A DNA stretch of 56,765 nt from Opitutia bacterium (GTDB taxonomy: Bacteria > Verrucomicrobiota > Verrucomicrobiia > Opitutales > Opitutaceae), in NCBI GenBank assembly GCA_947472765.1, contig CANJCM010000022.1, positions 1-56,765 of the forward strand, read 5' to 3'. A program made the translations under genes and the position numbers. Under the pieces are notes generated by a model. It was not told the origin of the DNA. It saw nothing but the letters and a program-made list of their open reading frames with translations, and searched no databases. Shown here piece after piece: positions 11,083-49,254 of the stretch (position 1 is the first letter of the stretch; every line of letters starts with the position of its first letter).

Positions 11083-11539
11083 TCCGCCAAGGTAGCAGCC
11101 TTTGCCTGCTTCGAATAATACTAAGGTAGACAGGATCCATTAGCTTAAAGCTAAGTGGCTCACTCGATCCGGGAGTGCCTGAATTATCACCATCGGCGCG
11201 GTTTCTGGATGGTGGCGCGCGGCGGAGAATCTCCGCGTCTCGCCGCCGTCATGGCGCGCATGGTTGCCCCGGGCCCTGAAAGTGACCCGGCAGGAACTTC
11301 GGGCGGTCACCGACTTCGTCGGCGGGCCATCGTCGGCACCTGGCAGGATTCGATCTCCAAGAAGTTGCGATCGAAGCGGATGTTTTCCCCGGCGAGGTGG
11401 TCGCTCCGAACCGGGGCTTCGCCCAAAAGACAGGCGGGCTTGCATGGGGCCCGTTCCCAACGAAGTGGGGCTCGACAGAAATTCCCGCAGGGGCGTGGTT
11501 CGTCCACGCCCGACGGCCCAAGGCGTTTCTCAGCCGTCT
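11083..11539. other. Intergenic stretch with one REP-like hairpin, no supported gene
   Basis: This 457-bp gap lies between the HPF-like gene start (minus) and the pheA stop (minus). The open frames here on both strands are arginine/glycine/proline-rich shadows. The region from 11140 to 11300 is rich in short inverted repeats, such as GCGGAGA/TCTCCGC near 11222-11236. A clean hairpin at 11491-11511 belongs to the repeat family described separately. Confidence 0.5.
11487..11511 (+). repeat. REP-like hairpin, GCAG head
   Basis: GCAG at 11487-11490 precedes an exact 8-bp stem, GGGCGTGG/CCACGCCC, with loop TTCGT. It matches the hairpin at 45666-45690 in stem layout and in the loop's TCGT, with a compensating base-pair change at the top of the stem. 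It stands alone, without an inverted partner. Confidence 0.6.
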
Positions 11540-12619
11540 TTAAGTGGCGGACGGATAACTGCCGAGCCACTTCACCAGCGGACAGAACTTCCGCAACTCC
11601 GCGACCGCCGCGCGCATGTTCTCGTCCTCGTAGTGCCCGGTCACATCGAGGAAGAAGTAATAATCCCACGGACGCTTCTTGCTCGGACGCGACTCGATCT
11701 TCGAAAGATTAATCCCGCGCTCGGCCAGCGGCATCAGCATCTTCAGCAGCGCGCCGGAATGCGACGCCGCCTCGTCACCGAGGGAAACCAACAGGCTCGT
11801 GATGTCCTTGCCGCCGCCGACCGCGCCGGACGGCTTCCGGCCAATCACGAAGAACCGCGTCGTGTTGTCGGCCTTGTCCTGAATGTTTCGCTCCACGACC
11901 GGCACGCCGTAGTGCTCGGCCGCAAGTTCTCCCGCCACGGCCGCCGCGCCCTTTTCCTCCTTGGCGCGCTGGACGGCGCGCGAGGTGCTCGGCGCATCAA
12001 TCAACTGGGCATGCGGCAGATGCCGCTGCAGCCAGTTCCGGCACTGGGCCAGCGCCTGATCCTTCGAATACACCCGCTCGATGCCCTCGAGCGGCGAGTT
12101 CGAGATGAGGGCGTGGTTTATCTCGAGATAGATTTGAGCGACGATCTTGAGGTCGCTCTCCACAAAGCTGTCGAGGGCCTCGCGCACCGAACCCTCGGTG
12201 GAGTTCTCGATTGGGATCACCGCGTAGTCGGTCTCCCCTTTCTCCACCGCCGTGAAGATGTCGTGAACACTCGCCATCGCGTGGTAATCGACCGAGGCGC
12301 CGAACTTCTTCAGCGCGGCCGAATGCGTGTTGCTGGCTTCGGGCCCGAGGTACGCGATCATCAGCGGCTTCTCCAACGCGATCGCCGCGGACATGATCTC
12401 CCGATAAATCGCGCGCAGGGCATCGTTCTTGATCGGACCCTGATTCTGGCCGGTCACCTTGCGAAAAACCGCGTCCTCGCGCTCGGCGACGTAAATCTGT
12501 CCACCCTGGCTGCGCTTCACTTTTCCAATTTCCGCCGCCAGTGCGAGGCGCTGGTTGAGGAGCGTCACCAGCTGCTTGTCCAGCCCATCGATCTGATCGC
12601 GAATCGGCCCGAGGTCCAT
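11540..12619 (-). CDS. pheA: Bifunctional chorismate mutase / prephenate dehydratase
   Basis: This 359-aa enzyme makes phenylpyruvate for phenylalanine synthesis. Residues 1-85 are an AroQ-type chorismate mutase (MDLGPIRDQIDGLDKQLVTL, ending REIMSAAIALE). Residues 87-270 are the prephenate dehydratase domain with IAYLGPEASNTHSAAL, then VIPIENSTEGSV and NTTRFFVIG. The rest is an ACT regulatory domain, including SGALLKMLMPLAERGINLSK and IESRPSK, the ESRP motif that binds phenylalanine. Feedback inhibition is therefore expected. The start is the ATG at 12619, five bases after the scpB stop; longer frames would overlap scpB. It is the second gene of a scpB-pheA operon. Confidence 0.96.
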   Translation of the reverse strand: MDLGPIRDQIDGLDKQLVTLLNQRLALAAEIGKVKRSQGGQIYVAEREDAVFRKVTGQNQGPIKNDALRAIYREIMSAAIALEKPLMIAYLGPEASNTHSAALKKFGASVDYHAMASVHDIFTAVEKGETDYAVIPIENSTEGSVREALDSFVESDLKIVAQIYLEINHALISNSPLEGIERVYSKDQALAQCRNWLQRHLPHAQLIDAPSTSRAVQRAKEEKGAAAVAGELAAEHYGVPVVERNIQDKADNTTRFFVIGRKPSGAVGGGKDITSLLVSLGDEAASHSGALLKMLMPLAERGINLSKIESRPSKKRPWDYYFFLDVTGHYEDENMRAAVAELRKFCPLVKWLGSYPSAT

Positions 12620-12624
12620 GGTGG

Positions 12625-13536
12625 TTAGGGCGTGAGTTTGGTTTCCTCGTTCGCGGTGGCGGCCGGAGCCGCCTCCGTGGACTCGACGGAGGCCGGGGTG
12701 TCGACGCTCAGGGTCGCGGCTTCGAGCGGCAATTGCTCGTTCGCCAGGCCCATGTCCGTGTCGTCCGGCGTGTGTGAATTCGTCGAGGTCTTGAGCCACT
12801 CGTCGATCTGGCGCGACGAGAGCACGTCGGAGGCCGGCAGTTCGTCGAGTGACTTGATGCCAACGAATTCGAGAAACTGATCGGTCGTGCCGTATTGAAT
12901 CGGCCGGCCGGGAGTGTCCGCGCGGCCGACCACGTAAACGAGCTCGCGCTCGAGCAGCTTGTTGACGCCCGCCTCGGCGGAGACGCCGCGAATGGTCTCG
13001 ATCTCGCCGCGCGTCACGGGCTGCCGGTACGCGATGACCGCCAGCGTTTCGAGCGACGACTGGCTCAGCTTCACCGGCGGCGGTTCCTGGCGCAGGATGC
13101 GGACCCAGCGCGCGAAACGCGGATGCGTTACGAGTCGGTAGCCGGCGTTGCCCTCGATCAGCAGAATCCCGTCGTCCGCAGCTCGGAGGTCGGCGGCGAT
13201 CTCATCCATCGCCTCGCGAATCTGCGTGGCCGTGATCAGCGACGGCACCTCGGCGTAGAGTTCGGGATCCTGCGGCGTTTCGACAAATACCTCGGCCGGT
13301 TCGACGGGGACCTCCGCGGGTGCACCTTCCGGAGCAGTTTCCGCAACCGGATCGGCGGCGACGGCTTCAGATGAGTCAGGCGTCGCGTCCGGGGCTTCGT
13401 CCGCTTGTTCCTCCAACGGCAGGGCCGACGCGGAATCGTGAAACCGCGTGAAGGCGGCCTGGACGTCCTTGATCGCGAGCGGCTGATTGGACGACAGCAG
13501 CAGTGCTTTCAGGACTTTTTTCAGGTTGAAGGCCAT
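12625..13536 (-). CDS. scpB: Segregation and condensation protein B
   Basis: This 303-aa protein is the ScpB winged-helix subunit of the SMC-ScpAB chromosome-condensation complex. MAFNLKKVLKALLLSSNQPL opens the first winged helix. The core motifs SSLETLAVIAYRQPVTRGEI, then IRGVSAEAGVNKLLERELV and the Y.TT..FL.fFGI-type YGTTDQFLEFVGIKSLDEL are all present. An acidic, proline-rich insert of about 55 residues (from ALPLEEQADEAPDA to QDPELYAEV) interrupts the first winged-helix domain, and a low-complexity tail of about 50 residues follows the core. The ATG at 13536 directly precedes the fold. The gene is divergent from ilvD across 150 bp. No scpA is in the window. Confidence 0.92.
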   Translation of the reverse strand: MAFNLKKVLKALLLSSNQPLAIKDVQAAFTRFHDSASALPLEEQADEAPDATPDSSEAVAADPVAETAPEGAPAEVPVEPAEVFVETPQDPELYAEVPSLITATQIREAMDEIAADLRAADDGILLIEGNAGYRLVTHPRFARWVRILRQEPPPVKLSQSSLETLAVIAYRQPVTRGEIETIRGVSAEAGVNKLLERELVYVVGRADTPGRPIQYGTTDQFLEFVGIKSLDELPASDVLSSRQIDEWLKTSTNSHTPDDTDMGLANEQLPLEAATLSVDTPASVESTEAAPAATANEETKLTP

Positions 13537-13686
13537 GCAGGGAAAATCGCGAGCAGTGATGCGGCGGCTTAACCGGCACGCAATAGGAATTTCTTTCGCG
13601 GCCATTGTGCGGTTGCGCCGCGAGTTTGACCCGGAACGCGCTTGCCCGGCCGTGGGCGCTCTGGTCTTCTGCGACCGATTTTATCC

Positions 13687-15390
13687 ATGAGCTCCGCCCC
13701 TGATTCCACCCGCAAATATTCCTCTGTCGTCCATGACGGCCCAAGCCGCGCCGGCGCGCGCTCCATGCTCCGCCCGGTCGGATTCTCCGAAGAGGATTTC
13801 AAGAAGCCCGTGGTCGGCATCGCCTCCCTCTGGAGCATGGTCACGCCCTGCAACATGCATCTCGACCAGCTCTCGCGCGACGCCGAGAGCGGCGCGAATG
13901 CGGCCGGCGGCAAGGCCATCGTCTTCGGCACCATCACGGTGTCCGATGGCATCAGCATGGGCACTCCGGGCATGCGTTACTCGCTCGTGTCGCGCGAGGT
14001 GATCGCCGACTCGATCGAGACGGTCGCGGGCGCGGAGGGCTTCGACGCCGTTGTCACGGTCGGAGGTTGCGACAAGAACATGCCCGGCTGCGTCATGGCC
14101 CTCGCGCGCCTGAACCGGCCCGGCGTTTTCGTCTACGGTGGCACTATCATGCCGGGCTTCCACCCGGACTCGAAGAAGGAGTGCGACATCGTTTCCGTGT
14201 ACGAGGCGGTCGGTCAACACGCCGCGCACAAGCTCGACGACCAGGGCTTGGAGAAGATCGAGGCCTGCGCCATTCCCGGACCGGGCTCCTGTGGCGGCAT
14301 GTACACCGCCAACACGATGGCGTGCGCCATTGAAGCGCTCGGCATGAGCCTCCCGAACAGCTCCTCCCAGATCGCAATTTCCAAGGAGAAGAAGGAGGAC
14401 TGCATCAACGCCGGCTCGGCTGCGGTCGCCTTGCTCAAGGCCGACATCAAGCCCCGCGACATCATGACGCGGAAGGCGTTTGAGAACGCGATCACCGTTA
14501 CCATCTCGCTCGGCGGCTCCACCAACGCGGTCCTTCACCTGCTCGCGATGGCTCATAGCGCGGGCGTGAAGCTCTCCATCGACGACTTCACCAAGATCGG
14601 CAAACGCGTGCCGGTCCTCGCTGATCTCAAGCCGTCCGGCAAATACGGCATGGTTCATCTCACCCGCATCGGCGGCCTCACGCCGCTGATGAAGATGCTG
14701 CTCGATGCCGGCTTGCTCCACGGCGACTGCATCACCGTCACGGGCAAGACCATCGCCGAGAACCTCCGCGGCGTGAAGCCCTACCCCACCGACCAGGACG
14801 TTGTCCGTCCCCTCTCGAATCCGATCAAGCCGGACAGCCACCTGCGCGTCCTTTACGGCAACCTCGCCCCAACTGGAGCCGTCGCGAAAATCTCCGGCAA
14901 GGAAGGTCTCGAGTTCACCGGCAAGGCCATCGTGTTTGAAAACGAGGAGTCGTCGCTCGCCGCGATCCTCGACGGTCGCGTCAAGGCCGGGCACGTCGTC
15001 GTCATTCGTAACGAAGGTCCCGTGGGCGGCCCGGGCATGCGCGAGATGCTCTCCCCGACCGGCGCCATCATGGGCAAGGGCCTCGGGGCGGACGTCGCGC
15101 TAATTACGGACGGTCGCTTCTCCGGTGGCAGCCGCGGTTTCGTCGTCGGTCACATCACCCCGGAAGCGGCGCTCGGCGGCCCGATCGGAATCATCAAGAA
15201 CGGCGACTCGATCACGATCAACGCGGTGAAGAACGAGATCACGATCAACATTCCGGCCAAGGACTACAAGGCCCGCCTGAAGGCCTGGAAGCCGAAGAAG
15301 ATGAAGGAAACGCGTGGTGTGCTCGCCAAGTATGCCAAGCTGGTGACCAGCGCCTCCGAAGGTGCCGTGACGGACAAGAATCTCTTCTGA
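13687..15390 (+). CDS. ilvD: Dihydroxy-acid dehydratase
   Basis: This 567-aa enzyme catalyses the third common step of isoleucine/valine synthesis, converting 2,3-dihydroxy acids to 2-keto acids. It is of normal IlvD/Edd length. Iron-sulfur ligands are visible in [19 protein letters not shown], with cysteines at residues 128 and 135. Other signatures are [23 protein letters not shown], then [15 protein letters not shown] and [19 protein letters not shown]. The ATG at 13687 follows a short AT-rich stretch. The gene is followed by pgi after 88 bp with no clear terminator, so the two may be read together. Confidence 0.97.
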
Positions 15391-15478
15391 GATTGCCTCG
15401 TTTCGCGTCCGGCCGCCGCGCGCGCAGCGCCGGCCGGGTGCAACTGGTCTTCTGCGCGCTCCTCCTCCCTCCGCTCCC

Positions 15479-17062: not shown

Positions 17063-17137
17063 GTCGGGGCCCGGTCCGGCCGCAATCAACACCGCGCTCT
17101 TGCAGAACGCCCTTTCGACTGTATTAGTCACCGCACC

Positions 17138-17302
17138 ATGACCTCGCTCAAGAAGACCGTCCTCGTCGGCCTCCTCGTGTCGTTCGGCGCTTTGCTGGGC
17201 GGATGCTCCACCAACGGGCCCAAGAAGTCGGCCATTCCGTGGAGTGCTCCCGCCGCGTGGGAAGGTCAGATTCCTGGCATGGGCCAGCCGATGGGTCGCT
17301 AA
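17138..17302 (+). CDS. Small lipoprotein, 54 aa
   Basis: This short frame starts MTSLKKTVLVGLLVSFGALL and continues GGCSTNGPKKSAIPWSAPAA, an unmistakable lipoprotein signal with the lipidated cysteine at residue 23. The mature part is only 32 residues, ending IPGMGQPMGR. It therefore resembles entericidin-like or Opitutaceae-specific small lipoproteins, though I cannot assign a family. Codon third positions are GC-rich, as in neighbouring genes. It lies 75 bp after pgi and 36 bp before a strong terminator, so it can be expressed as a short transcript of its own or as the end of the ilvD-pgi unit. Confidence 0.78.
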   Translation: MTSLKKTVLVGLLVSFGALLGGCSTNGPKKSAIPWSAPAAWEGQIPGMGQPMGR

Positions 17303-19078: not shown

Positions 19079-19236
19079 TGCACGTCACGGATAGCCTGGA
19101 TTCCGAAGTTAAGCGGATTGGCGTGGCCCTGTCCGTGAGGACAGGGCCTCCTTGATCGTTTCGCCTAAAGCCGTCCCGCTGCTCACGCAGCGGTCTACGA
19201 AGGCGACTTCGGAGTCCAAGGATAGCGTTACGTGCA
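19079..19236. repeat. Long imperfect inverted repeat enclosing two hairpins
   Basis: The outer arms (about 31 nt, 19079-19109 and 19206-19236) share TGCACGT at the outside and TCCGAAGT at the inside, with about three quarters of positions pairing. Inside lies GTGG-headed GGCCCTGTCC/GGACAGGGCC, a perfect 10-bp stem with GTGA loop at 19125-19148. A perfect 7-bp stem CCGCTGC/GCAGCGG with loop TCAC follows at 19176-19193, with CTAC (the reverse of GTAG) at 19195-19198. Folded, it is a three-way junction. It sits between the convergent phosphatase and rluD-like genes and could serve as a bidirectional terminator, but its layout also fits the paired REP-like elements elsewhere in the window. Confidence 0.75.
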
Positions 19237-24725: not shown

Positions 24726-24797
24726 GGAGGGCGGGTGCCCTCACCCGCCGAAATGATTCAATGTCCTGAAGCTGGCCGGTGGGCGCACCGGCCCTCC
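24726..24797. repeat. Inverted pair of REP-like hairpins, GGAG heads outward
   Basis: Unit one is GGAG at 24726-24729 and an exact 8-bp stem GGCGGGTG/CACCCGCC with CCCT loop. Unit two, on the opposite strand, has stem GGCCGGTG/CACCGGCC with GGCG loop and CTCC at 24794-24797. The units are 24 nt apart. The stems differ in sequence but remain fully paired. The pair lies between the M29 gene start and the lpxK stop. Confidence 0.75.
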
Positions 24798-26006: not shown

Positions 26007-26029
26007 GGGTTTTTGCGCGGCAAAAACCC
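26007..26029 (-). promoter_or_regulatory. Hairpin abutting the lpxK start codon
   Basis: Read on the minus strand, GGGTTTTTGC and GCAAAAACCC form a perfect 10-bp stem around a CGC loop, and the next base is the A of the lpxK ATG. In RNA this would place the start codon at the base of the stem. A near copy sits before the divergent aminotransferase. Confidence 0.6.
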
Positions 26030-26206: not shown

Positions 26207-26230
26207 AGGGTTTTTGCGCAGCAAAAACCT
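26207..26230 (+). promoter_or_regulatory. Hairpin abutting the aminotransferase start codon
   Basis: GGTTTTTGC and GCAAAAACC form a 9-bp stem around a GCA loop, extended by a G-T pair, and the ATG follows directly at 26231. It is the plus-strand counterpart of the hairpin at 26007-26029, with a different loop base. No Shine-Dalgarno sequence is present between it and the ATG. Confidence 0.6.
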
Positions 26231-27379: not shown

Positions 27380-27455
27380 GTGGCACGGGTCTCCCGACCC
27401 GTGGCGGCCCGATGATTTTCCTGACGGTCTGCCCTGGTCAGCAGACCCGTGCCAC
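27380..27455. repeat. Inverted pair of REP-like hairpins, GTGG heads
   Basis: The outer 12 bases GTGGCACGGGTC (27380-27391) recur exactly as their reverse complement at 27444-27455. The left unit is a clean hairpin, CACGGGTC/GACCCGTG with TCCC loop. The right unit forms GGTCTGC/GCAGACC with an 8-nt loop. It lies just after the terminator and 118 bp before topB. Confidence 0.72.
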
Positions 27456-32850: not shown

Positions 32851-32910
32851 GGGCGTGCACAAGGCCCGCCCCTACACGTACGGCCAGGCTTGCCATGTAG
32901 TGGCGCGCCC
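32851..32910. repeat. Degenerate inverted pair of REP-like hairpins, GTAG heads inward
   Basis: On the minus strand GTAG at 32872-32875 precedes GGGCGGGC, loop CTTGT and GCACGCCC, with one mismatched pair. On the plus strand a second GTAG at 32897-32900 is followed by GGCGCGCC-type sequence with a poorer stem. The first unit is nearly identical to the unit at 45624-45648. It lies between the convergent fba and ankyrin genes. Confidence 0.6.
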
Positions 32911-32945
32911 TCCGTTCGTTCGGCTACAGTTTGATTTAAACCGCT

Positions 32946-35806: not shown

Positions 35807-38196
35807 GGGGAGGTCCTCTTTTGAAACGGAGTGCTGTTGACGATGCCCAGGATCAGGGCGGAAAAACGATAATTGTCGGCCTGCGCGCGCCGGACGATTT
35901 CCCGGATCGCGGGAGCGTCGTGGGTCTCGACACCACGGCCGAGCGCGAAGATCAGGAGCTTCTCGGTCACCGTGCCGGCAAACAGGTCCGGCCGCCGCAG
36001 CAGCGCCTGCTCGAGGCCGTCGGCGCCGGTGAACTTGCTTCCATCCGGCGCCCCACCCGAGGCGTCAACCGGCCGGTAGTCCTCGCGATCCCGCCAGCGG
36101 CCGATCGCGTCGAAGTTCTCCAGCGCGAAGCCCACCGGATCCATCTCGTTGTGACAGCTCGCGCAGACCGGATTCTTCCGATGCTCGGCCAGGCGCTCTC
36201 GCATCGGCAGCGAGGCACCGACCACGTTCTCGTCGAGCGAGGGCACGTTCGGCGGCGGCGGGGGCGGCGGCATCCCGAGCAGGTTGTCGAGAATCCACTT
36301 GCCGCGAATCACCGGCGACGTGCGCGTCGCATAGGAGGTCACGGTCAGGATGCTGCCGTGCCGGAGCAGGCCGCCCCGGGAACGCGACGGCTGACCGGCG
36401 AACGAAACGCGCCGGAAGTGGCTCCCGTAGATGTTCGGAATGCCGTAGTGCTTCGCGAGCCGCTCGTTCAGGAAGGTGTAATCCGCCCCGATCAAATCCA
36501 CGATGCTGTGGTCCTCGCGGAGGATGCTCTCGAAGAACAGTTCGGTCTCCTCGCGCAGCGCCTGCCGCAGGTTGTCGTCGAAATCGATGAAGAGCCGCAG
36601 GTCCGGCGTCACGGACTCGAGGCCGCGCAGGTGCAGCCATTGCGTGGCAAAATTGGTCACGAGGTTGCGGGCGCGCTCGTCCGCGAGCATCCGCCGCACC
36701 TGCTGCTCGAGCCGCTGCGGATCCCGCAGGTCGCCGCGGGCCGCCGCTTCGAGCAGGGCGTCATCGGGAATACTGCTCCAGAGGAAGAACGAGAGCCGCG
36801 ACGCAAGTTCGACATCGCCGATCGGATAAACCGTGCCGGACGCCAGCCCCTCGGGATCGCGTTCGACCCGCAGGAGAAAACGCGGACTCACCAAAATGGC
36901 GCTGAGCGCATTCTCGATCCCGGCATCGAACCCGGCCCCCTCGGCACTGCCTTCGCGGAAGAATTGCAGCGGCCGCCGCAGATCCTCGTCCGTGACCGGC
37001 CGGCGATAGGCACGCCGCACGATGGGCGTCAGAATTTCGCGAGCCCGTGCCTCCTGTCCGGCCAGGGTGGTCGGGGCCTCGCTGGCGCCGAGTTTGCCGA
37101 AAATCTGGCGGCGGCTCGGGGTGTCCCCCGCCCCCTTGGCGTCAAAGGGCCCGGTGATCGACACCTGGTAGACGGCCGGCGCCGTGCGCGGGTGCCGGTG
37201 ATAATTGAACCGCACGAGAAACGGCTGGCGCTCGGTTTCGACGATGGCGGACGGATTCTTGGGGAAAGTGACCCCGACATCGTGCGGGCCGGCCTTCACG
37301 CTGACGCGATACTTCAGATGCGTGTCGACGGCCTCGGCGTTTTTGTCGCTGCCCGGCGGCTTCACCGTGAAGAGCGCGACGCGTTCCCGATCGACGAGAA
37401 ACTCGATGTCGTGCGGCTTCTTCAAACCCTCGACCTGCTCGTTACGATCGCGGGCCAGCCGGACCTGGATCTCGTACTCTCCGTCCTGCGGAAAAACGTA
37501 GGGAATCAGGGTGCCACCGCGCGTGCCCAGCGGGAGGCCCTCGATGTGCTCCTCCTGGGTGACGTCGGGTTTGACGCGAAATGTGTCGCCGCCGGGAGCT
37601 TTGCTCGCTCCGCCAATTGCCAGCCGCGCGATTTTTTGGGCGGCGCTGACGTAGCGATCGAGGAGCGTCGGAGAGAGATTGCCCACGGTCACGTTGTCGA
37701 AGCCGTGGCTCGGCTCGTCGTTCGGCAAAAGCGCCGTCGCGTCGATGCGCAACGCGAGCAGGTCGCGAATCGCATTCTGATATTCCGTCCGGTTGAGCCG
37801 GCGCAGGGTTTCCGTGCGTCCGGGATTCGGGTGCGCCGCGGCTTCGCGATCGAGCGTGGTGGTGAGAAATTGGGTGACCTGGCGGTAGGCCGCCTCGTCC
37901 GGACGCTCCTCGCCGACCGGGGGCATCTGCCGGTGATCGAGCTTGTTCAGCACGCGCTCCCAGATTTCCGCGTTCGCGCCCGGCTGCGAATAGTCGAGGC
38001 CCTCGAGCGAAAGCTCGGCCTTGCGGGCGCCTTCGTCATGGCAGTCCATACAGTACTGGCTGACGAGCTTCTCGAGCACGGCACCCGCCGGCGCCGCCGC
38101 GGCCGCCGCGGCCAGCCCGGTGGCGGACGCGACGAAACCGACGACCGGAATGATCCAGGATGGGGAGAGACGCGTGAAAAAACGCAGAATCGGCAT
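35803..38196 (-). CDS. DUF1592-type planctomycete cytochrome protein (DUF1587/1592/1588/1585 architecture)
   Basis: This 797-aa exported protein has a signal segment (WIIPVVGFVASATGLAAAA). A first haem-binding motif, CMDCH at about residues 49-53, is followed by LNKLDHRQMPPVGEERPDE, the usual QMPP of planctomycete cytochromes. Later come RRLNRTEYQNAIRDLLAL, the DUF1592 block ILVSPRFLLRVERDP and ELASRLSFFLWSSIPDDALL, and DUF1588/DUF1585 blocks with TSPVIRGKWILDNLLGMP. A second motif, VCASCHNEMDPVGFALENFD, lies near residue 678. Two c-type haems in the periplasm are expected. The ATG at 38196 was chosen over a TTG two codons upstream. It is the first gene of the minus-strand operon, with a 294-bp divergent region to its twin. 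Confidence 0.9.
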   Translation of the reverse strand: MPILRFFTRLSPSWIIPVVGFVASATGLAAAAAAAPAGAVLEKLVSQYCMDCHDEGARKAELSLEGLDYSQPGANAEIWERVLNKLDHRQMPPVGEERPDEAAYRQVTQFLTTTLDREAAAHPNPGRTETLRRLNRTEYQNAIRDLLALRIDATALLPNDEPSHGFDNVTVGNLSPTLLDRYVSAAQKIARLAIGGASKAPGGDTFRVKPDVTQEEHIEGLPLGTRGGTLIPYVFPQDGEYEIQVRLARDRNEQVEGLKKPHDIEFLVDRERVALFTVKPPGSDKNAEAVDTHLKYRVSVKAGPHDVGVTFPKNPSAIVETERQPFLVRFNYHRHPRTAPAVYQVSITGPFDAKGAGDTPSRRQIFGKLGASEAPTTLAGQEARAREILTPIVRRAYRRPVTDEDLRRPLQFFREGSAEGAGFDAGIENALSAILVSPRFLLRVERDPEGLASGTVYPIGDVELASRLSFFLWSSIPDDALLEAAARGDLRDPQRLEQQVRRMLADERARNLVTNFATQWLHLRGLESVTPDLRLFIDFDDNLRQALREETELFFESILREDHSIVDLIGADYTFLNERLAKHYGIPNIYGSHFRRVSFAGQPSRSRGGLLRHGSILTVTSYATRTSPVIRGKWILDNLLGMPPPPPPPNVPSLDENVVGASLPMRERLAEHRKNPVCASCHNEMDPVGFALENFDAIGRWRDREDYRPVDASGGAPDGSKFTGADGLEQALLRRPDLFAGTVTEKLLIFALGRGVETHDAPAIREIVRRAQADNYRFSALILGIVNSTPFQKRTSP

Positions 38197-38490
38197 ACGC
38201 AAGGGGGCAGCGGGGTCAGGGGATCGGCAGCGACGTCAAATGAACGTCACCACCGACCGCAAAAACATGTTCGGGGTCGCGTGCAGCGCGAGGCAAAATA
38301 TCACTTTGTTCCCAATCGCCGCGCGCTGCGATTCACCGTGGAGTTTCCAAATCCATCCGGCGCTGTCTTGACCTGCGGCGCCCGGCGAATTCGTTTGTAC
38401 CTGGCGGAAGCGACGGAGCGCGTTTCAGACCTGCTTCGCCTGCCCGCTGGCGAATCCCTCCTCCCCCGTCTATCCTGCATCGCTTCGAGC

Positions 38491-41235
38491 ATGAGCCCCC
38501 ATCGTCTTCCCTACCCTTGGCGTGTCTCCACCGTCGCCGTTTTCTCACTGCTCGCCGCGGTCGTCTCGTCGTCCGCCGCCGAACCCGACCTCGCTGCTTT
38601 CACCGACAAATACTGCTCCAGCTGCCACAACGACGTCGACAAAGAGGGTAACCTCGACCTCACAAGCCTTTCCTACTCGCCCGGCGACTCGTCCAACTTC
38701 CTCACCTGGGTCAAGGTCCACGACCGGGTGCAGGCCGGGGAGATGCCACCGAAGCAAAAGCGCCGCCCCAATGAGGCGGAGCTCGGTGGCTTCGTCCGCG
38801 ATCTGGCGACGTCGTTGACCTCCGCGGATCAGGCCGCGTCCGCACGCGAAGGTCGCGCCACGCAGCGGCGGCTCAACCGCTACGAGTTCGAGAACTCCCT
38901 GCGCGATTTGCTCCATGCGCCGGGATTGCAGGTGAAGAACGAATTGCCGGAGGACGGAGAGGCGGAGCTCTTTAACAAGATCGGCGATGCCCTCGATGTG
39001 TCGCACGTGCAGATGACGCGTTACATGAAGGCGGCCAATCTCGCCCTGCGCCAGACGCTCGCGGCGGAGCTCGCCCGGCTGCAGTTGCCCGCCCCGAAGG
39101 TGAAGCGCTACTGGGCCCGCGATGAGCGCGTCTGGACCCACACCTTCAGCCGCGTGGTCGACGGCAACCCGAATCCGGAACGCATGGCCTTCCCGGTTCT
39201 CGGCACGAAGCCCCAGCCGGAAGTGCGTGCGCTCAAGGCTCCGCTCACCGTGGGCGATTCCGATCCCGCCACCCGCGAACTCGAGGCCGTCGGCTGGATG
39301 CGGAGCAACTACCATCCGTTCCATACGATCTGGGACAACTTCCGCGCGCCGGTCGCCGGCAAATACCGCGTGCGTTGGAGCGGTTACACCATCTGGGTCG
39401 GACCCTACGGCTACAGCACGAGCACGGTGAAGAAGGAAGACGGCACCAAGGTGCTCATCGATAATCCGCGCCAGTGGAACGCGCCCAACGGCGATGATGT
39501 TTCCCCCGGTCGCCGCAACGAACCCATCACTGTCTACGCCCAAGGTCCGATGGATGTGCGCCGCGTCGGCGAATTCGATCTCACGCCGGATCCCGCCATC
39601 TACGATCTCGGGGTCATTCCGCTGGCGGAAAATGAGGCGCTCGTAACCGATGCCTCGCGGTTCTTCCGCAACCGCCCCGGCTCCGCATCCAATCCCCTCG
39701 CCCAACGCGACGGCGCGCCGGCGGTGGCTTTTCACTGGATGGAAGTCGAGGGGCCGTTGTTCGATGAAGCTTCTTCCGCGGGCTATCGCGCGCTCTTCGG
39801 CGATCTGCCTTTGATCAAGTCCGCCCGCGCCAATGCCGAGGTCACCGTGCAGACGCTGACGGCGACCTCGAATCGCGGCGCCGAGGGAGCCGGCGGTTAT
39901 GGCCGCGTCGTCCGGACTCAGGACACGCCCGTTGAAGTCGTCTCCAACCGGCCGGCCGAGGACGCGGAGAAGCTGCTCCGGGCATTCATGAAGCGCGCCT
40001 ATCGCCGCCCCGTCGACGAGTCCGAGGTGCAGCGCTATCTGGGCGTCATTCGCCAGCAGATGAAGGCCGGCCATGATTTCACCTATTCGATGATCGCGGG
40101 CTACACGGCGGTGATTTGCTCGCCCGGCTTTCTCTATCTCGAGGAAACGCCCGGACGGCTCGATGACTACGCCGTCGCCTCCCGCCTCGCTTTCTTTCTC
40201 TGGAACTCATCCCCGGACGAGGCGCTGCTCGAGCGCGCCCGCCGCGGCGAACTGCGCCAGCCCGCCCTGCTGCGCGCCGAAACGGAACGCTTGCTGAAGG
40301 ACCCGAAGTCGCGCCGGTTCGTCGAGGCGTTCCTCGATTACTGGCTCGAGTTGCGGAAGCAGGACGCCACGACGCCGTCGAATACGCTCTACCCTGACTA
40401 CTATCTCGATGAGTCGCTGGCCGAGGCCGCCCTCGATGAATCACGGTTGTTCTTCACCGAACTCGTCCAGCAGGACCGCCCTGCCCGCAACGTCATCAAT
40501 TCCGACTTCACCTACGTGAACGAGCGGCTCGCCGATCACTACGGCATCCCGAACGTCTCGGGTGCCTCGATGCGCCGGGTCGCGCTTCCGGCGGATGGCG
40601 TCCGCGGCGGCGTGATGACTCAGGCCATCGTGCTCAAGGTCACGGCCAACGGCACGACCACCTCGCCGGTCATCCGCGGCAAATGGATCAGCGAACGCAT
40701 CCTCGGCCGCCACATTCCGGCGCCGCCCGCGGCCGTTCCCGCGGTCGATCCTGACACCCGCGGCGCGGTGACGATCCGGCAGCAGCTCGAACGCCACCGG
40801 GCGGACGAGAGCTGTGCCGTCTGCCACAGTAAAATCGATCCGCAGGGCTTCGCCCTCGAGAACTTCGACGTCATGGGCGCCTGGCGGGACCGCTACCGCG
40901 GCGACGCCAAGGACAAGATGCCGGCGGTCGGCTTCGGCAAGAATGGCTGGGCCTTCGATTTTCACTTCGCGCTGCCGGTCGAATCCCAGGGCCAGATGCC
41001 CGACGGACAGAAATTCCGCGACGTCCGCGAATTCAAGCAGTTGATCCTGCGCGACGAGGCGCAGATTGCGCGCAATCTCACGCGGCATCTCGCCGTCTAT
41101 GCGACCAGTTCACCGGTGCGTTTCAGCGACCGCGCGAAGGTCGAACAGATCCTCAGCCAGACCAAAGCCGGCAGCTATGGCGTCCGCAGTCTGATCCACG
41201 CGATCGTCCAAAGTGAGCTTTTCCTGAATAAGTGA
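38491..41235 (+). CDS. DUF1592-type planctomycete cytochrome protein, second copy
   Basis: This 914-aa homologue of the divergent gene at 35803-38196 has a signal peptide (VSTVAVFSLLAAVVSSSAAE), haem motif CSSCH at residues 42-46 and EMPPKQKRRP. RRLNRYEFENSLRDLLHAPG, LAFFLWNSSPDEALLERARR and TTSPVIRGKWISERILG follow. The second haem motif CAVCH is at residues 775-779 before PQGFALENFDVMGAWRDRY. It is about 115 residues longer than its twin, mainly in the middle region between the PSCyt and DUF1592 blocks. The frame is open 890 codons further upstream, but that is antisense to the twin gene, so the ATG before the signal peptide was used. It is the first gene of the plus-strand operon. Confidence 0.9.
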   Translation: MSPHRLPYPWRVSTVAVFSLLAAVVSSSAAEPDLAAFTDKYCSSCHNDVDKEGNLDLTSLSYSPGDSSNFLTWVKVHDRVQAGEMPPKQKRRPNEAELGGFVRDLATSLTSADQAASAREGRATQRRLNRYEFENSLRDLLHAPGLQVKNELPEDGEAELFNKIGDALDVSHVQMTRYMKAANLALRQTLAAELARLQLPAPKVKRYWARDERVWTHTFSRVVDGNPNPERMAFPVLGTKPQPEVRALKAPLTVGDSDPATRELEAVGWMRSNYHPFHTIWDNFRAPVAGKYRVRWSGYTIWVGPYGYSTSTVKKEDGTKVLIDNPRQWNAPNGDDVSPGRRNEPITVYAQGPMDVRRVGEFDLTPDPAIYDLGVIPLAENEALVTDASRFFRNRPGSASNPLAQRDGAPAVAFHWMEVEGPLFDEASSAGYRALFGDLPLIKSARANAEVTVQTLTATSNRGAEGAGGYGRVVRTQDTPVEVVSNRPAEDAEKLLRAFMKRAYRRPVDESEVQRYLGVIRQQMKAGHDFTYSMIAGYTAVICSPGFLYLEETPGRLDDYAVASRLAFFLWNSSPDEALLERARRGELRQPALLRAETERLLKDPKSRRFVEAFLDYWLELRKQDATTPSNTLYPDYYLDESLAEAALDESRLFFTELVQQDRPARNVINSDFTYVNERLADHYGIPNVSGASMRRVALPADGVRGGVMTQAIVLKVTANGTTTSPVIRGKWISERILGRHIPAPPAAVPAVDPDTRGAVTIRQQLERHRADESCAVCHSKIDPQGFALENFDVMGAWRDRYRGDAKDKMPAVGFGKNGWAFDFHFALPVESQGQMPDGQKFRDVREFKQLILRDEAQIARNLTRHLAVYATSSPVRFSDRAKVEQILSQTKAGSYGVRSLIHAIVQSELFLNK

Positions 41236-43142: not shown

Positions 43143-43172
43143 AGCGCGGCCCACCGGCCGCGCTTTTTTTTG
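43143..43172 (+). terminator. Rho-independent terminator of the plus-strand DUF1592 operon
   Basis: AGCGCGGCC pairs with GGCCGCGCT around CACC and is followed by a run of T residues to 43172. It lies between this operon and the convergent sulfatase stop at 43178. Confidence 0.93.
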
Positions 43173-43177
43173 CGCCG

Positions 43178-44647: not shown

Positions 44648-44732
44648 GGAACGCCCCCGGCGTTTCCCGACGGCGCGCGTCACGTTGCGTGGACCGGTTC
44701 CGGCTGGCAATGCCGGCAACGTCCGGCCGGAA

Positions 44733-45554: not shown

Positions 45555-45623
45555 CCACGTCCGCCCTCCGGGTGCTCAGGACACAGCGCCAATCAGCTGG
45601 AAGGGTAATCGCCCAGACCTCTT

Positions 45624-45690
45624 GGGCGCGCACGAGGCGCGCCCCTACACGAAAAGAAATTCGATGTAGGGGCGTGCCTCGTGCACGCCC
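45624..45690. repeat. Inverted pair of REP-like hairpins, GTAG heads inward (intact)
   Basis: The left unit, read on the minus strand, is GTAG (45645-45648) plus stem GGGCGCGC/GCGCGCCC with a 5-nt loop. The right unit on the plus strand is GTAG at 45666-45669, stem GGGCGTGC/GCACGCCC at 45670-45690 and loop CTCGT. All 16 stem pairs are intact and the two units match in 24 of 26 positions. They are separated by 17 AT-rich bases. Confidence 0.82.
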
Positions 45691-45728
45691 GATTTCAAGA
45701 CGGCCAACCGTCGTGCAACCGGGTCTTG

Positions 45729-45798
45729 AGGCGCAGACGAGCCGCGCGCCTGCACGTGGGACGAACCCTGCCTTGTCGGAGCGTGTGTCGTGCACGCC
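45729..45798. repeat. Decayed second copy of the paired REP-like element
   Basis: The stretch at 45729-45754 aligns with the left unit of the preceding pair (shared AC-GAG loop and CACG end), and 45774-45797 aligns with the right unit (shared GTGCACGCC). Stems are now imperfect. It ends exactly where the DUF1080 gene's stop begins, so two such pairs lie in tandem between convergent genes. Confidence 0.55.
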
Positions 45799-46437
45799 TC
45801 AACTCTTCGGGCCTAGCCGGCGCACTTTGATCGAGCGGAACTTCACCACGCCCGGCCCCGCCGATTGCTGCAGGCCGATTGGGCCGGCCTCCATGTGCTG
45901 GTTGTCACGGGAATCGACCGTCTGAACCCCATTTAGCTGGAGGATGAAGTGATCGCCCTCGGCCCGGATGTAATATGTATTCCAGCGATCGATCGTGGAG
46001 GGTTGATCGACGGGCCGCGTGACGTTGACGAGACTGCCGGTGGGAAACGCGCCGCCCGGTTGCTTGTCGTAGATATTCGCCTCGTAGGAATTCGTGCCCG
46101 TCACGTTCCCGGTGAGCACGCAGCGAAAATAGATTCCGCTGTTCGCCCGCTCGTTCACCCAGAACTCCGCCTTCAATTCGAAGTCCCGATACAGTTCGTC
46201 GGTGCAGAGCATGCCCGACCCGCTGCCGCCGACGGAGCTGAGTACGCCGTCGCCCGTCTCCCACTTCGCGCTGCCCCGCGGGGTCAAACCGTCGAGCGTC
46301 TTGCCGTCGAAAAGCAGCTTCCAACCCGCCGCGGCCTCGCCGGGCGTCAGCGTGTTCGCCGGCCCGGCGGTCTCCGCCGCGAAGAGCGGGCGTCCGAAGA
46401 CAAGGACACAGAGGACGAGCAGCGCACGGGGTTTCAT
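45799..46437 (-). CDS. DUF1080 (3-keto-disaccharide hydrolase-like) secreted protein
   Basis: This 212-aa protein has a signal peptide (MKPRALLVLCVLVFGRPLFA) and one DUF1080 lectin-like beta-sandwich. Its blocks are GWKLLFDGKTLDGLTPRGSA, WETGDGVLSS, DFELKAEFWVNERANSGIYF, NSYEANIYDK and HFILQLNGVQTVDSRDNQHM, with GPIGLQQSAGPGVVKFRSIK at the end. The family is numerous in Verrucomicrobia and Planctomycetes. Some members are reported to act on 3-keto-glucosides, but the substrate here is not known. The ATG of MKPRALL starts the signal peptide. It is convergent with the TonB-like gene. Confidence 0.88.
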   Translation of the reverse strand: MKPRALLVLCVLVFGRPLFAAETAGPANTLTPGEAAAGWKLLFDGKTLDGLTPRGSAKWETGDGVLSSVGGSGSGMLCTDELYRDFELKAEFWVNERANSGIYFRCVLTGNVTGTNSYEANIYDKQPGGAFPTGSLVNVTRPVDQPSTIDRWNTYYIRAEGDHFILQLNGVQTVDSRDNQHMEAGPIGLQQSAGPGVVKFRSIKVRRLGPKS

Positions 46438-46599
46438 GCGGCGCAGCGTGGGCGGCTTCCGTTCGCCGAACAAGCCGACGCTCGTGCTTCACCGAGCCAA
46501 AACACCCCGCCCTGCGGCCCCCTCTCTCGAGAGGAGACCTTTTCGAGACGCCCTTCGAAGGTCACCTCGAGAGCCGGAACAATGCCGTGGAACGAAAAC

Positions 46600-46702
46600 G
46601 GCGGGTGTGGGCACCCGCCCTCCATGGTAGGAGGATCGTTCAGACTTCCGTTTGTGCTGCTCTCAAAGAGCAATCCATGGAGGGACGGTGCCCTCACCGT
46701 CC
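46600..46702. repeat. Inverted pair of REP-like hairpins, GGAG heads inward
   Basis: The left unit has an exact stem GGCGGGTG/CACCCGCC (loop TGGG) followed by CTCC at 46620-46623. The right unit has GGAG at 46679-46682 and an exact stem GGACGGTG/CACCGTCC (loop CCCT). The pair is separated by 55 nt. It is the same family as 24726-24797: the left unit has the same stem as that locus's first unit, in opposite orientation. Confidence 0.78.
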
Positions 46703-46793
46703 AAGGATGCCTAACGTGCGACGGAACCTCCTTAGATCGGTGTAGGGCCCGGTATTCCCTCCGTTTGGCCGTGAGCTTGCCGAACCGACCCGT

Positions 46794-46816
46794 CGCCGGT
46801 CGGAGACCGGCGCTAC
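46794..46816 (-). repeat. REP-like hairpin with GTAG head
   Basis: CGCCGGTC pairs with GACCGGCG around GGA, followed by CTAC (GTAG on the minus strand). A GTAG at 46742-46745 on the plus strand may mark a decayed partner, as no good stem follows it. It lies 52 bp before the aldo-keto reductase start, within a 430-bp gap that is otherwise occupied by the pair at 46600-46702. Confidence 0.65.
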
Positions 46817-46867
46817 CCAAACAATCAGGCTTGTTGGCGCGACCGCTTCGCGTGTTAGCTGCAGATC

Positions 46868-47896
46868 ATGAGCTACGTCCCCGCCGAGAATCGCTACACT
46901 GGAATGACCTACAACGTCTGCGGCCGCAGCGGCCTGAAACTGCCGGCGCTGTCCCTCGGGTTGTGGCACAACTTCGGCGGAACGACCGTTCCCGAGAACG
47001 CGCGGGCCATGTGTCGGCGCGCCTTCGACCTCGGCATCACGCACTTCGATCTGGCGAACAATTACGGGCCGCCCCCGGGCTCGGCCGAGAGCAACTTCGG
47101 CGAAATCCTGCGTTCCGACTTCGCCGGCCTGCGCGACGAACTGATCATCTCGACCAAGGCCGGTTATCGCATGTGGCCCGGTCCCTATGGAGAATGGGGC
47201 ACCCGGAAATACCTCACGGCCAGTCTCGACCAGAGCCTCAAGCGCATGGGCCTCGATTACGTCGACATCTTCTACTCGCACCGCTTCGACCCGAACACGC
47301 CGCTCGACGAAACGATGGGGGCACTCGATCGCGCGCTCCGCTCCGGCAAGGCGCTCTACGTCGGTCTCTCCTCCTACAACAGCCGGCGCACCCGCGAGGC
47401 GACCGCGTTGCTCAAGGAATTCGGCCACCGCTGCCTGATTCACCAGCCGAGTTACTCGATGCTGAATCGCTGGGTGGAGAAGGACGGCCTGCTCGACACG
47501 CTCGCGACCGAGGGCATCGGGTGCATCGCGTTCTCGCCGCTCGCCCAGGGAATGCTCTCCAACAAATACCTCGGCGGCACGCCGGCCGGCAGTCGCGCCG
47601 CGGCCAACACTTCTCTTCGCGGCACCTTCCTCTCCGACGCCAACCTCGCGAACATCCGCGCGCTCAACGCCATCGCCCAGGAACGCGGCCAGACCCTCGC
47701 GCAAATGGCGATCGCCTGGGTCCTCAAGGATCCCCGCGTGACGACCGCCTTGATCGGCGCGAGCAAGGTTTCCCAGATCGAGGACTGTGTCGCTGCCCTG
47801 AAGAACACCAAGTTCTCGCCCGACGAACTCACCCGCATCGACCAGTACGCCAAGGACGGCGACCTCAATCTCTGGGCCGCGTCGAGCGCGGGGTGA
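46868..47896 (+). CDS. yghZ: Aldo-keto reductase, YghZ/Gpr type (L-glyceraldehyde-3-phosphate reductase)
   Basis: This 342-aa enzyme closely follows E. coli YghZ. It has GRSGLKLPALSLGLWHNFGG, AFDLGITHFDLANNYGPPPG with catalytic Asp and Tyr, ELIISTKAGYRMWPGPYGEW, SLKRMGLDYVDIFYSHRFDP and LIHQPSYSMLNRWVEKDGLL. GCIAFSPLAQGMLSNKYL and TALIGASKVSQIEDCV come from the NADPH-binding end. The family reduces L-glyceraldehyde-3-phosphate and methylglyoxal with NADPH. It appears monocistronic: repeats flank both sides, and a 7-nt array starts directly after its stop codon. Confidence 0.95.
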   Translation: MSYVPAENRYTGMTYNVCGRSGLKLPALSLGLWHNFGGTTVPENARAMCRRAFDLGITHFDLANNYGPPPGSAESNFGEILRSDFAGLRDELIISTKAGYRMWPGPYGEWGTRKYLTASLDQSLKRMGLDYVDIFYSHRFDPNTPLDETMGALDRALRSGKALYVGLSSYNSRRTREATALLKEFGHRCLIHQPSYSMLNRWVEKDGLLDTLATEGIGCIAFSPLAQGMLSNKYLGGTPAGSRAAANTSLRGTFLSDANLANIRALNAIAQERGQTLAQMAIAWVLKDPRVTTALIGASKVSQIEDCVAALKNTKFSPDELTRIDQYAKDGDLNLWAASSAG

Positions 47897-47945
47897 GGCG
47901 TTTGGGTTCTGGGTTCTGGGTTCTGAGTTTTGCGTTCATCGTTTC
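47897..47945. repeat. 7-nt tandem array starting at the aldo-keto reductase stop
   Basis: Three exact GGGTTCT heptamers (47904-47924) are flanked in phase by GGCGTTT before and GAGTTTT, GCGTTCA and TCGTTTC after. The first unit begins on the base following the TGA at 47894-47896. Confidence 0.75.
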
Positions 47946-48114
47946 GCGGCCTGAGGCCTGCGAGCCGGTCTCTCCGTGGCTGCGAGCGTGAGCGAGTGGC
48001 CCCTGGGGTGTGACGTGTGACAGGTGGGGTGTGACCACGCTTACCTGAGCCAGAAGGCCGGTCGATTCAATGGCCGTGAGCTGCGAGCGCGCGCAGAGGG
48101 ACACCGCCGGCCCC

Positions 48115-48149
48115 AATCGAAAATCGAGAATCCAAAATCGAAAATCCCC
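48115..48149. repeat. 7-nt tandem array ending at the acetyltransferase stop
   Basis: Five heptamers in phase, beginning AATCGAA and AATCGAG and ending AATCCCC; all start with AATC. The last base is the first base of the acetyltransferase's stop codon on the opposite strand (48149-48151). Confidence 0.78.
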
Positions 48150-49018
48150 TACCCCTTCTCCGCCCCGCTCGTGCTAAACACCCGCGCCGGCACTCCCGGC
48201 CGCGGATTCTCTCCGAGGAACATCCGCGTGTAGCCGCGCTGCACGCTGAATCCGATCTCCCTCATCAGCGCCGCGCCCGTGGTATTCGGCGCCGGGACGT
48301 CGATGAACATCCGCTGGCCCGCGTGCCGCCGCACCACGCCCGCCAGGAGCGCCGCGGCCGCCGCGTCGTCCCGCGCCAGCCACGGCCCGACTTGCACCGC
48401 GTTGCGTCCGGTCCGGGCCATCAGAAACCCGCGAACGACCCCGCCGGTCCGCACCACGAAACAACTCTCCGGCTCGCGTGCCGCCAGCGAGCGCAACACC
48501 GCCGGTCGCGCCACACCGAAAATCTCCGCGTCGAACTCCACCACGTCCGCCCACACCGCCGCGCCCAGCGGCTCGAGCATCGCGCGGTCCGCCGCCGGCT
48601 CCGGTCCCGCGATCCCTTGAAAACGCGAGAGATCGTACTCATCCACGAACCCCATCGGCAGATAAACGGCCCGCCCCATCGGCGTCGCATCGAGCTTGAT
48701 GCTGCGGATGCCCCGCGCCCGTAAATGGTCGAGACACCGGTTCAGCAGGACCGAGCCGATGCCATGACGCCGCTGTTCCGGATGCACCAGCACCATGCCG
48801 ATCCAGCCCACGTCCCGCCCATACGTGATCGTCGTCGCCGTGCCCACGACCTGCCCCGCCAGTTCCGCCGCGAAGCAGCCCGCCGGCTCGAACTCAAGAT
48901 AACCCTCCCAGTCCCGCGGTGTCTGGTTCCAGCCCGCAAACTCCCGCAACTGATCCGCCGCCGCCAAGTCCGCCGGAGTCAGCAGGCGGAAAGTGACATC
49001 GGGATGCGGGGATTTCAT
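48149..49018 (-). CDS. GNAT acetyltransferase with C-terminal second domain
   Basis: This 289-aa protein has an N-terminal GNAT fold: VTFRLLTPADLAAADQLREF, then WIGMVLVHPEQRRHGIGSVL with the acetyl-CoA R/QxxGxG/A loop, and YLPMGFVDEYDLSRFQG. The second half (AVWADVVEFDAEIFGVARPA, ESCFVVRTGGVVRGFLMART and GFSVQRGYTRMFLGENPR) is typical of two-domain GNAT proteins with an Acetyltransf_18-like C-terminal domain. The acceptor is unknown. The start is the ATG of MKSPHPD; an in-frame start 14 codons earlier adds only alanine- and glycine-rich residues. Confidence 0.87.
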   Translation of the reverse strand: MKSPHPDVTFRLLTPADLAAADQLREFAGWNQTPRDWEGYLEFEPAGCFAAELAGQVVGTATTITYGRDVGWIGMVLVHPEQRRHGIGSVLLNRCLDHLRARGIRSIKLDATPMGRAVYLPMGFVDEYDLSRFQGIAGPEPAADRAMLEPLGAAVWADVVEFDAEIFGVARPAVLRSLAAREPESCFVVRTGGVVRGFLMARTGRNAVQVGPWLARDDAAAAALLAGVVRRHAGQRMFIDVPAPNTTGAALMREIGFSVQRGYTRMFLGENPRPGVPARVFSTSGAEKG

Positions 49019-49150
49019 GCGTCGTGGCATTTCACCCGCCGCCCCGGCCGACGCCATCACGAACCATCACCCCGGAATTGGGGTCTGGTTTCAGCTTGTG
49101 CTCCCCGAGCGGGATCCTAGCAACTCGACCGCCTCCACCGGTCCGCCTTT

Positions 49151-49204
49151 CTTCGTCGGGCTGCCGCTCTTCGTAGGGCTGACTTCCTTCGTAGGGCTGC
49201 CGCT
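49151..49204 (+). repeat. Three 18-bp tandem units containing GTAGGGCTG
   Basis: Three units of 18 bp start at 49151, 49169 and 49187, each CTTCGT[A/C]GGGCTG followed by CCGCT or ACTTC. The third unit supplies the GTAG head and first stem arm of the adjacent REP-like hairpin, so the tandem may have arisen by slippage of part of that element. Confidence 0.65.
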
Positions 49205-49254
49205 CGCCGGCAGGCCTCTCCCGCAATAGGCCCGGCGACCAGCGCCGGCCCTAC
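49191..49254. repeat. Inverted pair of REP-like hairpins, GTAG heads outward
   Basis: The left unit is GTAG at 49191-49194, then GGCTGCCG pairing with CGGCAG(G)CC, one bulged base. The right unit is GGCC(C)GGCG pairing with CGCCGGCC, then CTAC at 49251-49254. Both have 4-5 nt loops. A heptamer array follows within four bases. Confidence 0.72.

What the first reader, a model, noticed from the sequence alone, without database searches (positions are those of the whole stretch)
11487..49254. A family of REP-like paired hairpins with GTAG/GGAG/GTGG heads
At seven or more intergenic loci (11487, 19125, 24726, 27380, 32851, 45624, 46600, 46794, 49191) a GTAG, GGAG or GTGG tetranucleotide (GCAG at 11487) is followed by a 7-10 bp, mostly perfect stem and usually a 3-5 nt loop. 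Most are in inverted pairs, heads inward or outward. The stems differ between copies but stay paired: GGCGGGTG/CACCCGCC, GGCCGGTG/CACCGGCC, GGACGGTG/CACCGTCC, and GGGCGCGC, GGGCGTGC or GGGCGTGG with their complements. Such covariation means that the hairpin itself is conserved. The layout is that of REP/BIME elements mobilised by RAYT (TnpA-REP) transposases. No RAYT gene is in the window, so this would be a genome-scale family served in trans.
Basis: partly seen in the sequence, partly recalled or inferred. Interest (0 to 1): 0.75.

Follow-up and report, generated by a model that had tools for sequence, protein, structure and literature searches.

The report
REP hairpin families with matching transposases
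The paired hairpins belong to at least five families of short repeats, roughly nine hundred copies in one bacterial genome, in all likelihood spread by small hairpin-reading transposases; one family bears an unusual tag, GGAG, and transposases of that class change an amino acid thought to read the tag.

Summary
All nine sites are copies of dispersed hairpin families: not one, but at least five. Whole-genome matches (reversed-pattern control): GGAG 205 (0), GTAG-GGGCG 260 (1), GTGG 225 (2), GTAG-GGCCGGCG 354 (18), GTAG-CGCCGGTC 47 (8) in 4.97 Mb; the last three allow 3 mismatches and count some places twice, so about 155, 260 and 38 places. Copies are mostly intergenic and often in inverted pairs. 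The genome has two REP-type tyrosine transposases (RAYTs) bracketed by their own hairpins, one by GGAG, one by GTGG pairs. No RAYT for the GTAG families was found in this assembly, but relatives have RAYTs bracketed by the same GTAG hairpins. New here: the REP definitions I could read allow GT[A/G]G heads; GGAG heads are widespread in this phylum, and the RAYT residue aligned with E. coli H101 tracks head base 2: H in 79 of 83 with T, R/T/V in 58 of 61 with G. The host's own GGAG RAYT is an exception (H101, with F102). Binding and transposition were not tested.

The parts
11487..11511 (+). GTAG-GGGCG family hairpin, head decayed to GCAG
   Evidence: 80% identical to the copy at 45665
19123..19148 (+). 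GTGG-CCCTGTCC hairpin, a possible sixth family
   Evidence: 7 contexts in own sequence
19176..19198 (-). second hairpin beside it (GTAG + A + CCGCTGC stem); family not established
24726..24749 (+). GGAG family, stem GGCGGGTG
24774..24797 (-). GGAG family, stem GGCCGGTG, inverted partner, heads outward
27380..27403 (+). GTGG family, stem CACGGGTC
27426..27455 (-). diverged inverted GTGG partner
   Evidence: read from the sequence
32851..32875 (-). GTAG-GGGCG family copy with a G.A mismatch in the stem
   Evidence: read from the sequence; same 25-mer elsewhere
32897..32921 (+). decayed GTAG-headed partner; end set by eye
   Evidence: read from the sequence
45624..45648 (-). GTAG-GGGCG family, stem GGGCGCGC
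45666..45690 (+). GTAG-GGGCG family, stem GGGCGTGC, inverted partner, heads inward
46600..46623 (-). GGAG family, stem GGCGGGTG, left end of a 103-bp BIME
46679..46702 (+). GGAG family, stem GGACGGTG, right end of the 103-bp BIME
46794..46816 (-). GTAG-CGCCGGTC family
49191..49216 (+). GTAG-GGCTGCCG hairpin, partner of the next
   Evidence: read from the sequence
49230..49254 (-). GTAG-GGCCGGCG family
   Evidence: one search lists it with 1 mismatch

Best explanation
The hairpins are REP elements, often doubled into BIMEs, of several coexisting families. Each family is, or was, copied by its own RAYT, a small HUH tyrosine nuclease that binds the hairpin in single-stranded DNA, uses the four bases 5' of the stem as a guide for its cut, and moves the element to a new, mostly intergenic place. 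In this Opitutaceae-type genome the GGAG and GTGG families have a resident RAYT between copies of their own hairpins; the GTAG families are orphans here, or their RAYT is missing from the 157-contig assembly, and their RAYTs sit in relatives. GGAG is a separate guide class: the second guide base is read by the RAYT segment around E. coli positions 101-102, H101 going with T, and R or T at 101 (or an aromatic residue at 102) with G. Shown: copies, pairs, intergenic bias, RAYT bracketing, head-residue covariation. Inferred: binding, cutting, copying, and that 101/102 touch base 2.
For: Copy counts with controls. Intergenic bias. GGAG RAYT (G000:C32:35381-35830, 150 aa) with GGAG pairs on both sides, GTGG RAYT (G000:C37:20898-21563, 222 aa) between two 112-bp GTGG pairs. 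GGAG RAYT passes the NCBIfam REP transposase cut-off (99.5 of 80 bits); 4er8, E. coli TnpAREP with a REP hairpin, is the best match by sequence (E 8.6e-9) and by fold (E 1.2e-8; AlphaFold2 model mean pLDDT 91.6). Relatives have RAYTs with GTAG-GGGCG copies on both sides (G080 two loci, G091, G514, G496, G278) or GTAG-GGCCGGCG copies on both sides (G218, G502). Head base 2 against residue 101: 79 of 83 and 58 of 61; Fisher p 1.8e-31; dependent evolution on the tree LR 50.6, p 2.7e-10. With 3 or more hairpin copies per call: 57 of 58 and 38 of 39. The head caller makes 0 calls in 1005 wholly shuffled loci, 95 in 201 real ones.
Against: The host's own GGAG RAYT has H101, as have two of Lacunisphaera; four GTAG/GTGG RAYTs have R or Q. 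The GTGG RAYT falls just short of the NCBIfam cut-off (74.8 of 80). The pairs beside the two RAYTs have other linker lengths than the dispersed ones (GGAG 68 against 103 bp, GTGG 112 against 59-88 bp). GTGG copies are intergenic in only 24 of 35. The independent-pairs test is not significant (2 and 4 starred pairs); the tree rests on few columns. No RAYT for the GTAG families in the assembly. No movement was observed.
Confidence: 0.88

Rival explanations
1. The hairpins are RNA elements such as terminators or mRNA-stabilising structures, kept by selection near genes, and the RAYT link is incidental.
For: Intergenic bias; many copies lie between convergent genes (GGAG 18 of 51, GTAG 18 of 38 with both neighbours known). 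Stems are better kept than the linkers of GTAG and GTGG pairs.
Against: Two RAYT genes lie between copies of the very hairpins, a 55-nt linker is shared by 14 of 18 GGAG pairs, and head and RAYT residue covary; none of this is expected of terminators. A later host use of the copies is not excluded.
Confidence: 0.07
2. The head-residue link is only shared ancestry: a few RAYT clades happen to carry both, and residue 101 does not read base 2.
For: Heads change only about 8 times on the tree; the independent-pairs test is not significant; other columns follow base 2 as well or better inside one clade (102 in the short clade, 108 in the long clade).
Against: Dependent model preferred, LR 50.6, p 2.7e-10; column 101 is first of all columns over the whole set; the same change goes with G in both the short and the long clade; 101 aligns with a residue listed among those that meet the GTAG in E. 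coli.
Confidence: 0.25
3. The GTAG families of this genome are served in trans by the resident GGAG or GTGG RAYT, or by one of the five longer Y1 genes, not by a lost or unassembled RAYT.
For: No GTAG-type RAYT found in the assembly though the GTAG families are abundant; binding by one group 3 RAYT tolerates head changes (PMC8266576, passage).
Against: In relatives these GTAG families sit on both sides of a RAYT of another clade; stems and loops differ between families; repeats round RAYT genes can break short-read assemblies (inference).
Confidence: 0.15

Closest known systems
GTAG/GTGG REPs and REPtrons of Opitutus terrae, Stenotrophomonas and Pseudomonas (PMC3733652, PMC3686654, PMC2817692; passages read)
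   Same: Short headed hairpins, inverted pairs, intergenic, several families in one genome, each with its own RAYT; O. terrae has GTAG families and one that is mostly GTGG.
   Different: Heads there are GTAG or GTGG, with variants GYAG, GYRG, GTRG, GTMG; GGAG was not among the heads in the passages read. Two families here have a resident RAYT, three have none found.
Group 3 TnpAREP / subclass 2.5 (PMC8266576, PMC6006769; sections and passages read)
   Same: Small RAYTs with short, perfect-stem REPs; conserved W-Q...D region; H101 sometimes R.
   Different: The papers look for GT[A/G]G heads and leave the R at 101 unexplained in what I read; here R or T at 101 goes with GGAG.
E. coli TnpAREP (4er8) with REP y/z
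   Same: Fold, HUH motif and tyrosine, position 101 in the segment that meets the guide.
   Different: Short perfect hairpins without the E. coli bulge; GGAG or GTGG head.
IS200/IS605 elements (IS608, ISDra2)
   Same: HUH-Y1 fold; tetranucleotide guide 5' of a hairpin (PMC8266576).
   Different: RAYT scores are below the IS200 model cut-off (33.1 and 20.2 of 55); the dispersed copies carry no gene.

Membership tests
REP element | 20-40 nt hairpin with a GT[A/G]G tetranucleotide at its foot | tested here: met
   GTAG and GTGG families
REP element (GGAG family) | the head is GT[A/G]G as published (PMC3686654, PMC6006769) | tested here: not met
   head is GGAG in all 205 exact matches by construction of the pattern, and beside its RAYT; so filed as a variant
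REP element | high copy number, over 100 per genome | tested here: met
   GGAG 205, GTAG-GGGCG 260, GTGG at least 100 exact, GTAG-GGCCGGCG about 260 places; not met by GTAG-CGCCGGTC, about 38 places
REP element | mostly intergenic | tested here: met
   52 of 55, 38 of 40, 24 of 35 against 79% coding; weakest for GTGG
BIME/REPIN | inverted pairs with a defined spacing | tested here: met
   20 GGAG pairs picked from 100 of 205 places, 19 at offset 75-76, all of mixed stem type; GTAG and GTGG pairs with variable linkers
REPtron | RAYT gene flanked on both sides by its own REP | tested here: met
   GGAG and GTGG in the own genome; GTAG-GGGCG and GTAG-GGCCGGCG only in relatives; GTAG-CGCCGGTC: none found
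RAYT (NCBIfam NF047646) | score over the curated cut-off of 80 bits | tested here: met
   GGAG RAYT 99.5
RAYT (NCBIfam NF047646) | the same, for the GTGG RAYT | tested here: not met
   74.8 bits; it does pass the Pfam Y1_Tnp cut-off
RAYT | HUH motif and catalytic tyrosine | tested here: met
   H61, H63, Y122 invariant in 10 aligned RAYTs
RAYT | binds and cuts single-stranded REP | not testable with these tools
   needs purified protein

The most novel reading that the evidence does not exclude
GGAG is a separate guide class of REP elements, not recorded in the papers I could read, widespread in this phylum; and RAYTs have switched several times between reading T and G at guide base 2 by changing residues at positions 101-102 (E. 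coli numbering): a protein-read letter of the guide that can be predicted from the RAYT sequence.
Probability: 0.7. Interest if true: 0.72.

Novelty: new variant of a known kind. Interest (0 to 1): 0.62.

Why it matters
How RAYTs tell one REP from another has been studied for very few pairs. A natural set of 144 RAYT-head pairs with a base-to-residue rule makes the question testable by single swaps in laboratory proteins, offers a reason why H101 is sometimes R, and suggests that surveys limited to GT[A/G]G heads miss a class of REPs. The genome also holds abundant GTAG families for which no transposase was found, a case for the question of how REP families outlive or do without their own enzyme.

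Tried and rejected
Rfam at gathering thresholds: no match in the window. ARAGORN: no tRNA. The five longer Y1_Tnp genes of this genome (305-330 aa) were considered as the missing GTAG RAYTs: no headed hairpin was called beside four of them, and beside the fifth one single GTAG copy about 0.8 kb away; the three tested score 51.7-65.9 of 80 bits on the REP transposase model, the other two were not tested. Set aside, not excluded.

A shuffle control in which only the sequence outside the stop-to-stop frame was shuffled was flawed, since hairpins lie inside that frame (24 of 201, then 122 in 5 x 201, still called, with the same head-residue link); with the whole locus shuffled 0 of 1005 were called. 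Independent-pairs test on the tree: not significant. Columns that follow head base 3: none clear (best 0.36 bits). Bases beside the elements: no sharp cut dinucleotide seen. Covariance model not built; pattern counts with controls and the free-arm pairing test were used. Heads of the first set were first read by eye (57 aligned), then replaced by a uniform caller that admits only G[TG][AG]G heads: of 201 loci 99 had no call, 5 a doubtful and 2 a mixed one, and of the 87 of the third set 31 had no call and 6 a doubtful one; all these were left out. One called RAYT of the third set had a gap at 101 and was dropped. On checking, I found that the three mismatch searches counted some hairpins on both strands; the counts are corrected from held sequence.
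Full report
Observation. The window is contig C22 of a 4,968,708-base genome in 157 contigs. Pattern searches of the whole genome, each with the reversed pattern as control, give GGAG 205 (0) and GTAG-GGGCG 260 (1), both exact, and with up to 3 mismatches GTGG 225 (2), GTAG-CGCCGGTC 47 (8) and GTAG-GGCCGGCG 354 (18). The last three count some hairpins on both strands; from the own sequence held, the matches stand for about 155, 38 and 260 places. The five families together are thus roughly 900 places. A sixth type, that of 19125, was met in 7 contexts in 414,663 bases of own sequence.

Families. The heads do not belong to one varying family. GGAG copies have mainly the stems GGCGGGTG, GGACGGTG and GGCCGGTG. 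Among the 100 places shown of 205 I picked, by eye, 20 inverted pairs at 100 bp or less; all 20 join the first two stem types, 19 of them at an offset of 75-76 bp. In the loci held, 14 of 18 GGAG pairs have a 55-nt linker and the linkers are alike, so the pair seems to spread as a 103-bp unit, like the one at window 46600-46702. GTAG pairs also point their heads inward, GTGG pairs outward, and in both the linker varies (6 and 14 pairs). With the right arm left free, stems pair perfectly in 31 of 34 GGAG, 24 of 49 GTAG-GGGCG and 39 of 43 GTGG copies.

Place. With a simple codon-usage gene finder, 52 of 55 GGAG, 38 of 40 GTAG and 24 of 35 GTGG copies lie outside predicted genes, where 79% of the same sequence is coding; all 15 window points tested are intergenic.

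RAYTs in the genome. PF01797 finds seven genes. One, 150 aa, lies between arrays of GGAG hairpins; another, 222 aa, lies between two 112-bp GTGG pairs and ends inside the downstream one (start codons not verified). The pairs beside these genes have other linker lengths than the dispersed ones (GGAG 68 against 103 bp, GTGG 112 against 59-88 bp). The other five genes are longer (305-330 aa) and not bracketed by headed hairpins. The GGAG RAYT matches E. coli TnpAREP 4er8 by sequence (E 8.6e-9) and, as best hit, by fold (AlphaFold2 model, mean pLDDT 91.6; E 1.2e-8, TM 0.68 by query).

GTAG families. RAYTs with GTAG-GGGCG copies on both sides are in relatives G080 (two loci), G091, G514, G496 and G278, and RAYTs with GTAG-GGCCGGCG copies on both sides in G218 and G502. 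The own genome has no close match to this RAYT type (best own E 4.5e-10, which is the GGAG RAYT; none at 1e-12). Of 20 family genomes searched, 7 carry 12 or more exact GTAG-GGGCG matches: own 260, G080 123, G238 54, G091 47, G278 19, G218 13, G050 12; the other 13 have 2 or fewer, among them G013 of the same genus. Of the six other than the own genome, G080, G091 and G278 have a RAYT bracketed by this family; the RAYTs found in G218 and G050 are flanked by other GTAG hairpins; G238 was not searched with this RAYT. For GTAG-CGCCGGTC no RAYT was found.

Host. The RAYT of L252, titled Opitutaceae bacterium, is identical to one from G080, a genome of the same family as the window's, so the host is placed in or next to Opitutaceae (Verrucomicrobiota); its species is not known.

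Head class and residue. An alignment of 57 RAYTs with heads read by eye suggested that the residue after the conserved D of the W-Q-x3-x-D-x segment follows the second head base. It aligns with H101 of 4er8. PMC6006769 (section read) discusses H101 with the residues that meet the GTAG in E. coli and says that it is sometimes R. I then fixed a uniform head caller and applied it to 201 distinct RAYTs (122 from the order-wide searches and the own genome, 79 from genome contigs; 95 called) and to 87 further ones (50 called). The second and third sets were gathered after the rule was seen. By set, T2 heads with H: 29/32, 29/29, 21/22; G2 heads (GGAG, few GGGG) with R, T or V: 17/18, 14/16, 27/27. 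Over all 144: 79/83 and 58/61, Fisher p 1.8e-31; on a tree built without the motif a model of dependent evolution is preferred (LR 50.6, p 2.7e-10), and column 101 carries the most information of all well-filled columns. With 3 or more copies per call it is 57/58 and 38/39. The head changes at least 8 times on the tree and the residue 9 times. In a later batch of 37 loci, all 17 in which GTAG topped the list and the motif could be read have H; one of them is 99% identical to an earlier one.

Against. Seven of 144 do not fit. Three are GGAG with H101: the host's own RAYT and two titled Lacunisphaera; all three have F at 102, and in the short clade column 102 tells base 2 better than 101 does (0.91 against 0.63 bits). 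In the long clade column 108 is slightly ahead (0.90 against 0.84). Four are GTAG or GTGG with R or Q: L152, L201, L223, L350. The independent-pairs test is not significant (2 and 4 starred pairs). So the link is strong, but the causal residue is not pinned down, and the host's own pair does not obey the simple form of the rule.

Literature. PMC3733652, PMC3686654, PMC8266576, PMC6006769, PMC2817692, PMC12306157 and PMC8049555 were read in passages or single sections. Heads named there are GTAG, GTGG or their variants; the word search for GGAG counts 0 in the RAYT and REPIN papers listed. Supplements were not read, and two papers that I recall (Bertels 2017 on RAYT groups, Messing 2012 on 4er8) did not appear in the listings. 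'Not recorded' means within these.

Mechanism. In the published model (PMC8266576, passages and section 3) TnpAREP binds the hairpin in single strand, the tetranucleotide acts as guide, and A3G4 or G3G4 choose CT or CC as the cut; one enzyme also cut at CA, ascribed to T2G4. If base 2 is not needed for the cut at CT, a change from T to G there would need only a change in the protein. That fits the covariation, and is inference.

Noticed in passing
26007-26029 and 26208-26230: Two near-identical perfect hairpins of another kind (GGGTTTTTGC stem, no G[TG][AG]G head) 200 bp apart; similar ones in L084 and L085 of the same genome.
   Followed up: partly
L014:2899-3564 and 3529-3552: The GTGG RAYT frame ends inside its downstream BIME, so its last residues are encoded by the REP.
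   Followed up: no
L008, L009, L010, L011, L012: Five long Y1_Tnp genes (305-330 aa) with a C-terminal extension and no headed hairpins called on both sides; two of them lie within 500 bases of a contig end.
   Followed up: partly
91-2682: An 863-aa frame with ATP-dependent DNA ligase domains and, N-terminally, a short match to the RMMBL metallo-hydrolase domain.
   Followed up: no
35821-41235: An 1804-aa frame with Planctomycete-type PSCyt1, PSD2-5 and PSCyt3 domains, followed by a DUF1552 protein.
   Followed up: no
L113, L116, L200, L216: RAYT genes of relatives set in long arrays of headed hairpins.
   Followed up: no
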